Assembly: GCA_902790475.1 (NCBI GenBank)
Contig: CADASG010000020.1
Span: forward strand, 1-45,458
Reading direction: 5' to 3'
Source of the DNA: an uncultured Ruminococcus sp.
GTDB taxonomy: Bacteria; Bacillota; Clostridia; Oscillospirales; Acutalibacteraceae
Length of the DNA stretch: 45,458 nt
The notes under the pieces are model-generated. The model made no database searches. It saw only the letters and a list, made by a program, of their open reading frames with translations, and was not told where the DNA came from. Each line of letters starts with the position of its first letter. Within the stretch, counting starts at the first letter, position 1. The translations under genes and the position numbers were made by a program. Positions 10,343 through 14,700 of the stretch are shown piece by piece.

Positions 10343-12109
10343 ATGAATAAAGGAATCATTACGAAGGTCGCAGGCCCTTTGGTTATCGCAGAGGGTATGC
10401 GTGACGCCAATATGTTTGACGTTGTGCGCGTAAGCAGCCGACGCCTGATTGGCGAAATCATCGAAATGCACGGCGACAAGGCTTCCATTCAGGTTTATGA
10501 GGAAACCTCGGGCTTAGGCCCCGGCGAAACGGTGGAAAGCACCGGCGCTCCGCTGTCCGTTGAGCTGGGTCCCGGCTTGATCGGCGCCATTTACGATGGT
10601 ATCCAGCGCCCGCTCAACGAGATCATGAAGGTCGCGGGCACCAACCTCAAGCGCGGCGTAGACGTGCCGTCGCTTGATCACAAAAAACAGTGGGAATTTA
10701 CTCCCGTCGCTAAGAAGGGCGACAAGGTTAAAGCAGGCGACGTGCTGGGAACCGTTCAGGAAACCGCTGCCGTTCTGCATAAGATCATGGTGCCGAATAA
10801 GGCGGAAGGCACCGTTGAGAGCATCAAAGCAGGCAAATTCACGGTTGACGACGCTGTAGCCGTGATCAAAACCGCAGGCGGCAATCAAAAAGTAACCATG
10901 TGTACCGCATGGCCTGTACGTGTGGGCAGACCCTACAAAAAGAAGCTCTCACCCGACATTCTGCTGACAACAGGTCAGCGCCCCATAGATACCCTCTTCC
11001 CTCTCGCCAAGGGCGGCGTTGCAGCGGTTCCCGGTCCTTTCGGCTCCGGTAAAACCGTTGTACAGCACCAGCTTGCGAAGTGGGCGGCTGCGGATATCAT
11101 CGTCTACATCGGCTGCGGCGAGCGCGGCAACGAGATGACCGACGTACTTAACGAGTTCCCCGAGCTGAAAGACCCGCGCACAGGCAATTCGCTGATGGAG
11201 CGTACCGTGCTGATCGCAAACACCTCCGACATGCCCGTTGCAGCGCGTGAGGCTTCTATCTACACCGGTATCACTATTGCCGAGTATTTCCGCGACATGG
11301 GCTACACCGTTGCTCTGATGGCGGACTCTACCTCGCGCTGGGCGGAGGCGCTGCGCGAAATGTCCGGACGTCTGGAAGAAATGCCCGGCGAGGAAGGCTA
11401 CCCTGCATATTTAGGCAGCCGTCTGGCTCAGTTCTATGAGCGTGCCGGCCGTGTGCTGGTAAACGGCACCGAGGACACCGAGGGCGCGCTGTCTGTTATC
11501 GGCGCGGTTTCACCTCCCGGCGGCGATATCTCCGAGCCTGTATCGCAGGCGACCCTGCGCATCGTCAAGGTGTTCTGGGGACTGGACGCAAACCTCGCCT
11601 ACAAGCGCCACTTCCCTGCTATAAACTGGCTGACCTCCTATTCGCTCTATACCGATCAGCTCACAAAATGGTTCGCGGAAAACGCCGCGCCCGATTTCAT
11701 GGAGCTGAGAGGCAGACTGATGGCGCTGCTTCAGGACGAGAGCGAGCTTCAGGAGATCGTAAACCTGGTCGGTATGGACGCGCTGTCCGCACCCGACCGT
11801 CTGAAGCTTGAAAGCGCGCGTTCCATCCGCGAGGACTATCTGCATCAAAACGCTTTTGACCCGACCGACACCTACACCTCGCTTCCCAAGCAGGTGCTGA
11901 TGATGCGCGCGATACTCAGTTATTATGACAAGGCTCTGGAAGCGCTGAACAACGGCGCGAATATTGAGCTTTTGGTCAATATTCCCGTGCGCGAGCGCAT
12001 CGGACGTTTTAAATATGAACCCGAAAACAAGGTGAACGCTGAATTTGAGAGTATCCAGGCTCAGCTTGACAGCGAGATCGACGACGTACTGAAAAGGAGT
12101 GATGACTGA
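10343..12109 (+). CDS. ntpA: V-type ATPase catalytic subunit A
   Basis: A 588-residue catalytic ATPase subunit. It has an N-terminal beta-barrel, the V-type non-homologous insertion (about 110-190), the P-loop GPFGSGKT at 231-238, the GER block at about 260, and a conserved nucleotide-binding core through [20 protein letters not shown]. It forms the A3B3 hexamer with subunit B and hydrolyses ATP to drive Na+ export or the reverse. A strong AGAGGT site precedes the ATG. The stop codon overlaps the next start by one base (TGATG). Confidence 0.98.
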
Positions 12110-13482
12110 TGCCAAAGGAATACCGTACCATACGAGAGGTAGCAGGTCCTCTGATGATGATCAGTGACGTTGAGGACGTAAAATATGACGAGCTGGGCGA
12201 GATCGAGCTGCCCGACGGCGAAACACGCCGCTGCAAGGTACTTGAGGTTGACGGAAACAACGCTCTTGTACAGCTCTTTGACTCCGCCGCAGGTATCAAC
12301 CTTGCAGGCTCAAAGGTCAGATTTTTGGGACGCAGCATGGAGCTGCCCGTGTCCCCCGATATGCTCAGCCGCGTGTTTGACGGTCTGGGCAACCCCATTG
12401 ACGACGGTCCCGCGCTGATCCCCGAAAAGCGCATGGATATCAACGGAACGCCCATGAACCCCGCCGCGCGCAACTATCCGCAGGAGTTCATCCAAACAGG
12501 CGTATCCGCGATAGACGGACTTAACACACTGGTAAGAGGACAGAAGCTGCCGATCTTCTCCGCTTCGGGTCTTCCCCACGCTCAGCTTGCGGCGCAGATC
12601 GCGCGTCAGGCAACAGTAAGAGGCAAAAACGAGCAGTTCGCCGTTGTATTTGCCGCTATGGGCATCACCTTTGAGGAGTCCGACTACTTTGTTCAGTCCT
12701 TTAAGGAAACGGGCGCTATCGATCGTACCGTTATGTTTGTAAACCTCGCCAACGACCCTGCGATCGAGCGTATCGCAACGCCGAGAATGGCGCTGACCGC
12801 CGCGGAGTATCTGGCGTTTGACTTAGGTATGCACGTTCTGGTCATTATGACCGATATCACCAACTACGCCGACGCTCTGCGCGAGGTTTCCGCAGCCCGT
12901 AAGGAGGTTCCCGGCAGACGCGGATATCCGGGCTATATGTACACCGACCTTGCGACCCTTTATGAAAGAGCCGGACGACTCAGAGGCAAGGACGGTTCTA
13001 TCACCCTGATCCCCATTTTGACCATGCCCGAGGACGACAAGACCCACCCCATCCCCGACCTTACCGGCTACATCACCGAGGGTCAGATCATCCTCAGCCG
13101 CGAGCTGTACCGCAAGGGCGTTACACCTCCTGTTGACGTACTGCCGTCATTGTCCCGACTCAAGGATAAGGGTATCGGTCCCGACCGTACCCGTAAGGAT
13201 CACGCCGCTACAATGAACCAGCTCTTCGCCGCATATGCGCGAGGCAAGGACGCACGTGAGCTGATGGTCATTTTGGGTGAAGCCGCGCTGACCGACATGG
13301 ATAAAAAATACGCCGAGTTTGCCGAAGCGTTTGAAAAGGAATATGTTTCACAGGGCTACGAAGCCAACCGCACCATTGAGGAAACACTCGACATCGGCTG
13401 GAAGCTGCTCAAGATCCTCCCTCGCAGCGAGTTGAAACGTATCAAGGACGATATGCTCGACGAGTTCTACGGAAAGCAATAG
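12109..13482 (+). CDS. ntpB: V-type ATPase non-catalytic subunit B
   Basis: A 457-residue regulatory subunit of the A3B3 head. The P-loop position is replaced by [18 protein letters not shown], the typical non-catalytic form. The later blocks [20 protein letters not shown] and [13 protein letters not shown] are strongly conserved in the family. It is translationally coupled to ntpA. The G of the TAG stop is the first base of the hairpin that starts the inserted element at 13482, so the element abuts this gene exactly. Confidence 0.98.
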
Positions 13483-13569
13483 TGAATCGCAGCGCGATTC
13501 ACTTCATGTTGCGCAGCGGCAATTCATTTGCTTTGGCAATCTTCATGTCGGCAACGACAATTCATTTGG
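13482..13569 (+). repeat. Left micro-hairpin array of the IVP element
   Basis: Read on the minus strand, this region alternates the 8-mer ATGAATTG (or variants such as ACATGAAG) with short hairpins: TGTCG-TTGC-CGACA, TTGC-CAAA-GCAA, an imperfect TTGC/GCAA stem, and a perfect GTGAATCGC-GCT-GCGATTCAC. The array is inverted relative to the one at 13945-14028, so the two bracket the gene between them like terminal inverted repeats. Confidence 0.75.
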
Positions 13570-13579
13570 AGACAAACTC

Positions 13580-13948
13580 ATGAGAAACAATGAATTGGTA
13601 AACCTTTCGAAAACGTTTGCGGTAGATATTATCAATCTCTGCAATTCAATTCGTGAACAGAAAAAAGGAAACATACTTGTTAATCAACTGTTAAAGAGCA
13701 GCACCAGTATCGGAGCAAATATCCATGAAGCAAATTACGCTTCCGGCAGGAATGATTTCATTAATAAGCTTCATATTTCACTTAAAGAATGCTATGAAAC
13801 CGAATACTGGCTTGAAATTTTTAAAAACACAAGTATGATATCAATTCCTCAGTTCAACGCACTGATCTCACAGTGTTATAAATTACGCCGAATCCTTTCT
13901 GCTTCTGTCAATACCGCGAAAATGAACTCAAACAAGGAGCAGGAATGA
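13580..13948 (+). CDS. Four-helix-bundle protein, 23S rRNA IVP / Avd-like family
   Basis: A 122-residue protein of the 23S rRNA intervening-sequence / diversity-generating-retroelement accessory family (TIGR02436/PF05635-like). The signature SSTSIGANIHEANYASGRND followed by KLHISLKECYETEYWLEI is clear. Members form basic four-helix-bundle pentamers that bind nucleic acid; the cellular role of the stand-alone members is not established. It lies between ntpB and ntpD, where the operon normally has no gene. It is visibly more AT-rich than its neighbours and is bracketed by opposing hairpin arrays. GGAG lies 8 bases before the ATG. No reverse transcriptase or template repeat is nearby, so a retroelement role is not supported here. 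Most likely a mobile passenger. Confidence 0.88.
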   Translation: MRNNELVNLSKTFAVDIINLCNSIREQKKGNILVNQLLKSSTSIGANIHEANYASGRNDFINKLHISLKECYETEYWLEIFKNTSMISIPQFNALISQCYKLRRILSASVNTAKMNSNKEQE

Positions 13949-14028
13949 ATTGAAGCACTCGCTTCATGAATCGTTTGTTTAGCAAACATGAATTGTTTTG
14001 CAAACATGAATTTTGCGCACTGCGCAAA
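13945..14028 (+). repeat. Right micro-hairpin array of the IVP element
   Basis: On the plus strand, ATGAATTG or ATGAATCG separates four hairpins: AAGC-ACTC-GCTT, GTTTG-TTTAG-CAAAC, GTTT-TGC-AAAC and TTTGCGC-ACT-GCGCAAA. The stop codon of the IVP gene lies inside the first ATGAATTG. It mirrors the left array in inverted orientation. Confidence 0.75.
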
Positions 14029-14046
14029 TTAACAGAGGTAATAAAC

Positions 14047-14700
14047 ATGGCAATTATGAATGTTAATCCTACGCGTATGCAGCTGAGCAAGCTGAAAAAG
14101 CAGCTTCTAACGGCGGTGCGCGGACATAAAATGTTAAAGGACAAGCGCGACGAGCTGATGCGGCAGTTTTTGGATCTTGTACGCGAAACCAAGGAGCTGC
14201 GCGAGCAGGTGGAGCGCGAGCTGGAAAACTGCAACAATCACTTTGTCAACGCGAGCGCGGTGATGAGCAAGGAAACGCTCGACGGCTCTCTGCTGAGCCC
14301 AAAGCAGCGCCTTAACGTTGAAATAAACAGCAAAAACGTGATGAGCGTTGAGATACCGCAGTACGAAACCGGCGCGCGCACCTCCGACGAGGGCGACATT
14401 TTCCCGTACGGCTTCGCGTTCACCTCGTTTGAGCTGGACGACGCGGTACAAAGCCTCGACAAAGTGCTGCCCGACCTGATCAAGCTTGCCCAATATGAAA
14501 AAAGCTGCGAGCTGATGTCGGCGGAAATCGAAAAGACGCGCCGCCGCGTCAATTCGCTGGAGCACGTCATGATCCCGCGCTATCAGGAGACCATCAAGTA
14601 TATCTCCATGAAGCTCGAGGAAAACGACCGCAGCAGCCGGACAAGGCTGATGAAGGTCAAGGACATGCTTCTCGACAAAGCACATCATTATTCTGCATAA
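14047..14700 (+). CDS. ntpD: V-type ATPase subunit D (central stalk)
   Basis: A 217-residue central rotor shaft with long N- and C-terminal helices forming an antiparallel coiled coil. Family blocks include NPTRMQLSKLKKQL at the N-terminus and RRVNSLEHVMIPRYQETIKY near the C-terminus. An open frame reaches back to an ATG at 13966, but that region is the hairpin array. ATG 14047 has an AGAGGT site seven bases upstream and gives the family N-terminus. It is the last gene of the operon, separated from ntpB by the inserted element and followed by a strong terminator. Confidence 0.95.
   Translation: MAIMNVNPTRMQLSKLKKQLLTAVRGHKMLKDKRDELMRQFLDLVRETKELREQVERELENCNNHFVNASAVMSKETLDGSLLSPKQRLNVEINSKNVMSVEIPQYETGARTSDEGDIFPYGFAFTSFELDDAVQSLDKVLPDLIKLAQYEKSCELMSAEIEKTRRRVNSLEHVMIPRYQETIKYISMKLEENDRSSRTRLMKVKDMLLDKAHHYSA

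What the first reader, a model, noticed from the sequence alone, without database searches (positions are those of the whole stretch)
13482..14028. IVP/Avd-type gene inserted into the V-ATPase operon between ntpB and ntpD
Bacterial V-ATPase operons keep ntpA-ntpB-ntpD tightly packed, and here about 560 bp separate ntpB from ntpD. The insert encodes one AT-rich four-helix-bundle protein of the 23S rRNA IVP family. It begins on the last base of the ntpB stop codon, and ntpD's own ribosome binding site lies just after it. The placement suggests a mobile or domesticated genetic element that spreads as gene plus flanking hairpins without encoding a transposase. If so, mobility would have to be supplied in trans or act through RNA.
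Basis: partly seen in the sequence, partly recalled or inferred. Interest (0 to 1): 0.78.

Follow-up and report, generated by a model that had tools for sequence, protein, structure and literature searches.

The report
Jumping IVP gene with hairpin arms
A small gene framed by arrays of short DNA hairpins sits in the V-ATPase operon of a gut bacterium; it seems to belong to a widespread kind of mobile element with no recognisable transposase, which gives a lead on several old puzzles (rRNA intervening sequences, heptamer repeats and the orphan Gut-1 RNA).

Summary
Confirmed and enlarged. An intact, AT-rich IVP/Avd-fold gene (13580-13948) sits between ntpB and ntpD inside two arrays of four short hairpins, spaced by AATTCAT before the gene and ATGAATT after it. 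Of 43 readable genus junctions, 3 hold the gene, 33 are 3-45 nt long and 7 are 53-134 nt without it. In the three filled species the words persist while hairpin stems change and stay paired. Gene-less elements with this word occur twice in this genome and are amplified in some relatives. In the host family 44 of 108 IVP genes have complementary flanks against 0 of 94 control ORFs, mostly with period 7; 12 of 13 fetched plasmid IVPs have such arms too. Arms follow IVP similarity and outer flanks hardly do, so gene and arms travel together. Arrays of one related word type match Rfam Gut-1, an orphan RNA. Over 134 genera Gut-1 co-occurs with IVP (odds ratio 15.6), not with reverse transcriptases (0.99) or Y1 transposases (1.3). 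Best reading: a mobile element in which IVP is probably the specificity factor for its own word array. Against: most Gut-1 loci checked lack a nearby IVP, and no mechanism is shown.

The parts
13483..13579 (+). upstream half-array: hairpins at 13483-13501, 13509-13522, 13528-13539, 13547-13558 (and a weak one 13566-13575 holding GGAG), separated by (A)(A)TTCAT words
   Evidence: best Rfam match in 13400-14100 is Gut-1 at 13496-13567 (minus strand), 17.7 bits, below its gathering score of 50, E 1.1
13580..13948 (+). IVP / four helix bundle protein, 122 aa; its stop codon lies inside the first downstream ATGAAT word
13945..14028 (+). downstream half-array: ATGAAT words at 13945, 13966, 13988, 14006, each followed by a hairpin (last one 14012-14028)
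13483..14028 (.). whole insertion; 40 of 43 readable genus junctions lack the gene (33 with 3-45 nt, 7 with 53-134 nt)
12109..13482 (+). ntpB, V-ATPase subunit B (left host gene)
14034..14700 (+). presumed ntpD ribosome binding site AGAGGT (14034-14039) and gene (14047-14700), right host gene

Best explanation
The insert is a member of a family of mobile elements made of an IVP (S23/four-helix-bundle) gene and inverted arms built from a repeated 6-8-nt word. In much of the IVP tree the arms are plain tandem heptamers that can pair with each other across the gene. In one derived IVP clade, to which the window belongs, short hairpins stand between the words, so the two halves can also pair word to word with hairpins branching off. 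Gene-less copies of the arms multiply as non-autonomous elements; one word type of them is the orphan Gut-1 RNA. Shown here: the architecture, presence/absence at the site, co-movement of gene and arms, hairpins that change but stay paired, and co-occurrence of IVP with Gut-1. Inferred: the IVP oligomer binds its own word array, as RNA or as single-stranded or cruciform DNA, and is the specificity factor for spread. New copies are made by host replication or recombination at microhomology rather than by a transposase. In the operon mRNA the arrays fold up, and ntpD keeps its own ribosome binding site, so the insertion is tolerated, as rRNA intervening sequences are in 23S rRNA.
For: Empty and filled sites. 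Hairpins that differ yet pair between fixed words in three orthologous copies and in gene-less copies: stem of 4 bp or more in 91 of 128 units against 5.2% of shuffled ones; GNA triloops 57 of 87. One gene-less element folds with z -8.35 as RNA and -10.4 as DNA. Complementary arms in 44 of 108 IVP loci against 0 of 94 control ORFs, which are mechanical ORFs of 90-400 aa; period 7 or 14 in 36 of the 44 found (109 loci). Arm k-mer similarity rises with IVP identity (0.11 below 25%, 0.24 at 65-75%, 0.36 at 75-90%, 0.53 above 90%) while outer flanks stay at 0.14-0.16 (0.21 above 90%). The same 418-nt element, 88% identical, lies in two contexts on Nostoc plasmids. 12 of 13 fetched plasmid IVPs have arms above threshold. 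Gut-1 in 15 of 20 loci of one word type plus L131. Gut-1 against IVP, one genome per genus: 46 of 61 with IVP and 12 of 73 without, OR 15.6; Y1 OR 1.30, RVT_1 OR 0.99.
Against: No transposition has been watched and no target-site duplication was found. In the two Nostoc cases with readable empty relatives the element stands where 188-198 or 314-328 nt of host DNA are missing, so insertion may be coupled to deletion, or deletion came later. Of 12 genomes rich in ATTCAT arrays, 11 have some PF05635 match and G402 has none; among the IVP loci of these genomes whose flanks I printed, only one each in G013 and G052 has ATTCAT hairpin arrays. Of 30 Gut-1 loci held, 5 have an IVP match within about 1.5 kb, one of them a 27-residue fragment. 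In the range of 40-75% protein identity the mean arm similarity is only a little above permuted (0.150 against 0.142, sd 0.002). For the window copy the up/down complementarity score is 30, above the 95% null (24) but not the 99% null (34). Co-occurrence is not causation, and genera are not fully independent.
Confidence: 0.6

Rival explanations
1. The arrays are independent MITE-like elements moved by some other factor, and the IVP gene is only cargo that some copies picked up.
For: 25 of 30 Gut-1 loci held have no IVP nearby; the ATTCAT elements listed are gene-less; several ATTCAT-rich genomes showed no IVP with that word.
Against: Gut-1 co-occurs with IVP across genera (OR 15.6) and not with Y1 or RVT_1; words follow IVP similarity; complementary arms accompany IVP in Cyanobacteriota, Spirochaetota and Bacteroidota too.
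Confidence: 0.2
2. A domesticated gene: the IVP protein and its hairpins regulate or process V-ATPase mRNA.
For: ORF under purifying selection, pN/pS 0.17-0.21; same place in three species.
Against: Absent in 5 of the 8 species of the clade and in 40 of 43 readable junctions; close IVP relatives with the same word sit beside other genes, and no ntpA/B/D match (E 1e-3) was found in 95 other IVP loci of up to 3.4 kb.
Confidence: 0.1
3. A REP/RAYT-like system: hairpin units moved by a Y1 (REP-associated) transposase.
For: Short hairpins beside constant words; Y1-family genes, some RAYT-like by eye, in several genomes.
Against: Y1 does not co-occur with Gut-1 (OR 1.30, p 0.49); the 12 Y1-type matches inspected have no ATTCAT arrays in the 2.2-6 kb fetched around them; Y1 in 7 of 12 array-rich and 6 of 13 array-free genomes.
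Confidence: 0.08
4. A diversity-generating-retroelement relative: IVP acts like Avd with a reverse transcriptase that copies and diversifies the arrays.
For: Avd fold; stems variable beside constant words.
Against: RVT_1 in 3 of 12 array-rich and 9 of 13 array-free genomes; RVT_1 against Gut-1 OR 0.99.
Confidence: 0.06
5. A type III toxin-antitoxin-like pair: repeat RNA upstream of a small protein.
For: In many relatives a repeat array lies directly before the apparent promoter and gene (by eye).
Against: The best fold matches are IVP/Avd proteins; arrays come in inverted halves and occur without the gene. The comparison with ToxN is recalled, not tested.
Confidence: 0.04

Closest known systems
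23S rRNA intervening sequences (IVS) with S23p ORF
   Same: IVP-family ORF enclosed by ends that can pair; sporadic distribution (PMC4990558, abstract and introduction read)
   Different: here in a protein operon, not rRNA; arms are hairpin/word arrays; gene-less copies amplify; RNase III excision not tested
Gut-1 RNA (RF01706)
   Same: three hairpins separated by UGAAAU words, the plan of one half-array; found upstream of IVP genes in 16 loci
   Different: window word is AATTCAT and scores 17.7 bits, below 50; the 2010 paper lists Gut-1 as a noncoding RNA of human gut samples only (PMC2864571, passages read)
Intergenic heptamer repeats (GGGAATC repeats; TAACTGA repeats; STRR, the last name recalled)
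   Same: period-7 tandem words, in Xanthomonas often in inverted pairs (PMC4692102, PMC4679880, passages read)
   Different: 'four helix' occurs in neither main text, and 'IVP' and 'intervening' not in PMC4679880; the window type carries hairpins between the words
REP/REPIN elements with RAYT (recalled)
   Same: dispersed short hairpins next to constant sequence
   Different: no associated Y1 transposase found
Avd of diversity-generating retroelements
   Same: fold (4DWL, 8UBE); homology of PF05635 and Avd noted in PMC10053308 (passages read)
   Different: no reverse transcriptase gene in the element, and no RVT_1 match on the window contig

Membership tests
PF05635 / TIGR02436 (IVP, four helix bundle protein) | score above curated cut-off | tested here: met
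   83.7 vs 33.8 bits and 97.4 vs 24 bits
PF05635 / TIGR02436 (IVP, four helix bundle protein) | four-helix-bundle fold like solved members | tested here: met
   (2RLD TMq 0.84-0.87)
23S rRNA IVS | lies within an rRNA gene | tested here: not met
   lies between ntpB and ntpD
23S rRNA IVS | complementary ends that close the element | tested here: inconclusive
   arm score 30, null 95% 24 and 99% 34; fold z -4.6
23S rRNA IVS | excision by RNase III | not testable with these tools
   needs RNA work
Gut-1 RNA (RF01706) | score at or above 50 bits | tested here: not met
   window 17.7 bits; met by 16 related IVP loci
Diversity-generating retroelement | reverse transcriptase linked to the Avd gene | tested here: not met
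   own genome has RVT_1 matches on contigs C131, C40 and C95 only, not on the window contig C20
REP/RAYT | Y1 transposase gene flanked by the repeats | tested here: not met
   12 Y1-type matches in relatives inspected, no ATTCAT arrays in the stretches around them; own genome has no PF01797 match
Classical IS or MITE | target-site duplication | tested here: inconclusive
   two Nostoc filled/empty comparisons show missing host DNA and no duplication, two more could not be read; not decidable at the window site

The most novel reading that the evidence does not exclude
IVP elements are a separate class of prokaryotic mobile element with no transposase, integrase or reverse transcriptase. The IVP oligomer recognises a clade-specific 6-8-nt word array that folds into a ladder of junctions, and this nucleoprotein drives copying into new sites in trans, mobilising gene-less arrays. 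On this view rRNA intervening sequences, intergenic heptamer repeats and Gut-1 RNA are faces of one system.
Probability: 0.4. Interest if true: 0.93.

Novelty: new variant of a known kind. Interest (0 to 1): 0.8.

Why it matters
IVP/S23 proteins occur in several phyla and have no known function, and very little is known of what rRNA intervening sequences do (PMC4990558, introduction). Tying IVP genes to a word array that travels with them gives the protein a concrete candidate ligand and makes the mobility question testable. It also offers an origin for some intergenic heptamer repeats and a genomic partner for the orphan Gut-1 RNA.

Tried and rejected
RAYT/Y1 and reverse transcriptase as mobiliser: tested in 25 chosen genomes and then in 200, not supported. 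Target-site duplication: four filled/empty pairs of cyanobacterial plasmid loci compared, two readable, none found. tRNA insertions (L048, L057, L058) show what looks by eye like a partial copy of the tRNA-Leu 5' part on the left; not worked out. Other IVP genes in the own genome: one more, frameshifted, on C67, without AATTCAT arrays. Rfam on the whole window at gathering: nothing. Phages: 2 unannotated records with IVP, not followed. Papers: ten searches; in the listings shown, which for some are only the top 15-20 of 36 to 967 papers, I saw no report that links IVP genes to heptamer or hairpin arrays or to Gut-1. Subscription papers are mostly not held.

Selections and limits of the counts. 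The 12 array-rich and 13 array-free genomes were picked by eye, and some genomes with 4-5 hits were left out. The 20 loci were picked by eye for an ATTTCA-like word. 13 of 25 plasmid records were fetched; their period was not computed. The ATTCAT pattern also hits simple AT repeats, and its reversed control gives hits in 6 of 162 genomes. Two of 45 ntpD loci were dropped as unreadable (G034, G060). In one search IVP rows with internal stops or under 95 aa were dropped, and only 28 of the 67 rows of the hairpin clade pass the strict array threshold. In one search at most 22 candidates per genome were scored, and 1 of 14 control genomes rang below the cut-off. The one-genome-per-genus set (G061-G194) is inferred from the printed handle order.

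Full report
What is there. Between ntpB (ends 13482) and ntpD (starts 14047) lies one intact 122-aa ORF, 13580-13948. It is a clear IVP/four-helix-bundle protein, modelled with pLDDT 92.9 as four helices. Its nearest solved structures are two S23/IVP proteins, 2RLD and 2GSC, then Avd of diversity-generating retroelements. The insert is 37.9% GC against 55.7% and 53.2% for the host genes. The flanks are not random AT-rich DNA: upstream, short hairpins are separated by (A)(A)TTCAT; downstream the order is mirrored with ATGAAT(T). The first hairpin starts at the ntpB stop codon, the IVP stop codon overlaps the first downstream word, and the AGAGGT before ntpD follows the last hairpin.

Is the site empty elsewhere? 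Of 61 genus genomes searched with ntpD, 45 gave a strong hit and 43 could be read across the junction. Three hold the IVP gene (564, 546 and 553 nt: G000, G052, G013), 33 have 3-45 nt, two have 53 and 66 nt, and five have 92-134 nt without a gene. These five show heptamer-like inverted words, some convincing and some weak (fold z -1.5 to -3.1; the two of 53 and 66 nt z 0.3 and -1.1). In the ntpB+ntpD tree the three filled species lie in one 8-species clade (98/91) with five empty ones. Three changes are needed and two are forced, about as many as for shuffled labels (mean 2.9), so one gain with losses and repeated insertion both remain possible. One empty species (G006) keeps a single hairpin at the same spot, which looks like a footprint.

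What is conserved? In the three orthologous copies the words are kept while the hairpin stems are largely rewritten and still pair. Of 24 stems (8 positions in 3 species), 23 have at least 3 Watson-Crick pairs by script, and no position has the same stem in all three. The ORF is under purifying selection (pN/pS 0.17-0.21, with synonymous sites saturated).

Other copies. The same genome holds two gene-less elements with the same words, on C9 and C46. In the genus the three-word pattern occurs in 46 of 162 genomes and is strongly amplified in some (G352 79 hits, G401 43, G345 38, G372 31); the reversed control hits 6 of 162, and simple AT repeats are part of the 46. Typical copies among the 23 clusters printed are about 200 nt: about four hairpins facing one way, a short centre, often closed by CATTCCTG...CAGGAATG, then about four facing the other way. 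Stems of 4 bp or more are in 91 of 128 units against 5.2% of shuffled ones, and 57 of 87 triloops read GNA on the AATTCAT strand. GNA loops closed by C-G are very stable in DNA (recalled). One gene-less element folds with z -8.35 as RNA and -10.4 as DNA.

A family-wide rule. PF05635 matches occur in 120 of 250 genomes of the host family. I took 110 of these IVP loci plus the window; with later loci 166 were scored. Complementary up/down flanks beyond the null threshold occur in 44 of 108 IVP loci and in 0 of 94 control ORFs of the same loci, with period 7 or 14 in 36 of the 44. Chains of four or more hairpins upstream occur in 37 of 166 IVP loci, 3 of 104 control ORFs and 2 of 166 shuffles. 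In a tree of 154 IVPs all 28 rows scored as hairpin-array type fall into one 67-row clade (100/98) that includes the window, and complementary arms prevail elsewhere. The nine closest loci from named genomes (56-62% identity, Clostridia MAGs, six of nine from goat or deer by title) all carry AATTCAT/AAATCAT arrays; no ntpA/B/D lies near them, and four of the nine share neighbouring sequence.

Gene and arms move together. Over 10,440 pairs of 145 loci, arm k-mer similarity climbs from 0.11 (protein identity under 25%) through 0.24 (65-75%) and 0.36 (75-90%) to 0.53 (above 90%), while sequence 400-700 nt outside stays at 0.14-0.16 (0.21 above 90%). For pairs of 40-75% identity the excess is small (0.150 against 0.142 permuted) but no permutation of 999 reaches it. 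On Nostoc plasmids a 418-nt element of 88% identity sits in two different surroundings. Of 13 fetched plasmid IVPs (25 records matched), 12 have arms above the threshold; these span Cyanobacteriota, Bacillota, Spirochaetota and Bacteroidota, and the one from Chloroflexota scores 25. Two of them have near relatives in which the empty site can be read: the element stands in place of 188-198 nt (four relatives) and of 314-328 nt inside a DNA cytosine methyltransferase gene (two relatives), with no target-site duplication, and the left edge lies at a word-like AATT or CAATTCG in the target. Two further comparisons were too diverged to read.

The Gut-1 link. Rfam finds Gut-1 RNA (RF01706) upstream of the gene in 15 of 20 IVP loci chosen for an ATTTCA-like word, and in L131. 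In four loci both halves score, on opposite strands. The Gut-1 consensus is three hairpins separated by UGAAAU, i.e. half an array. In the window the best match of any family is Gut-1 at 17.7 bits, far below its threshold of 50, so this is only a hint. Gut-1 occurs in 89 of 200 family genomes (70 over its cut-off), in 76 of the 89 with two or more matches; of the 30 loci held, 5 have an IVP match within about 1.5 kb, one a short fragment. Taking one genome per genus (134), Gut-1 is in 46 of 61 genomes with IVP and 12 of 73 without (OR 15.6, p 6e-12, genera taken as independent). For Y1 transposases the OR is 1.30 (p 0.49) and for reverse transcriptases 0.99 (p 1).

Reading. The window copy is an IVP element of the hairpin-array type. 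It is mobile on an evolutionary scale, has no recognisable transposase, and is accompanied by gene-less derivatives. The likeliest job of the IVP protein is to bind its own word array and so give the system its specificity; this step is inferred from co-movement and co-occurrence, not shown. Whether copying passes through RNA, single-stranded DNA or recombination is open; missing target DNA and microhomology in the two Nostoc cases favour recombination or replication over a cut-and-paste enzyme. Against a tight pairing, the flanks I printed from the ATTCAT-rich genomes show an IVP with that word only in G013 and G052; most of these assemblies are incomplete. Ten literature searches showed no report of these links in the listings seen.

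Noticed in passing
L198 (G000:C9) about 1144-1271: A gene-less ATTCAT element in the same genome is itself interrupted by a roughly 130-nt stretch with inverted ends (ACTAATCTCAGATAAAAAGTGGAC / GTCTATTTTTTATTTGAGTTTAGT), apparently a second small mobile element.
   Followed up: no
L048, L057, L058: Heptamer-armed IVP genes sit just upstream of what look by eye like tRNA-Leu genes, with a partial copy of the tRNA 5' part on the far side of the element.
   Followed up: partly
for example L060, L111, L131, L137, L361: Hairpin-array IVP elements often begin shortly after a tRNA gene or a terminator-like T-run (by eye; tRNAs next to Gut-1).
   Followed up: partly
L314, L316-L318, L320-L322: Y1-family genes that look RAYT-like (by eye and recall), without ATTCAT arrays beside them, sit between host genes in several genus members.
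   Followed up: no
L337, L345, L346: On plasmids IVP genes lie between parts of restriction, DISARM or BREX gene sets (hsdS-hsdR, helicase-methylase, drmD-pglX).
   Followed up: no
L343 537-1433 against L430 and L431: An IVP element lies within what is an intact DNA cytosine methyltransferase gene in relatives, on a Nostoc plasmid, where about 314 nt of it are missing.
   Followed up: yes
G000:C67 5192-5496 (L004 2193-2497): Second IVP copy of the genome, frameshifted, after a tRNA-like stretch and an integrase-like ORF (both by eye), with ATTCTTTATTC-type arms instead of the AATTCAT arrays.
   Followed up: partly
PMC10910872 figure legend (passages read): A large CRISPR survey names 23S rRNA IVP in the legend on new associations of CRISPR adaptation modules; IVP-linked repeat arrays may have been called as CRISPR-like (speculation).
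   Followed up: no
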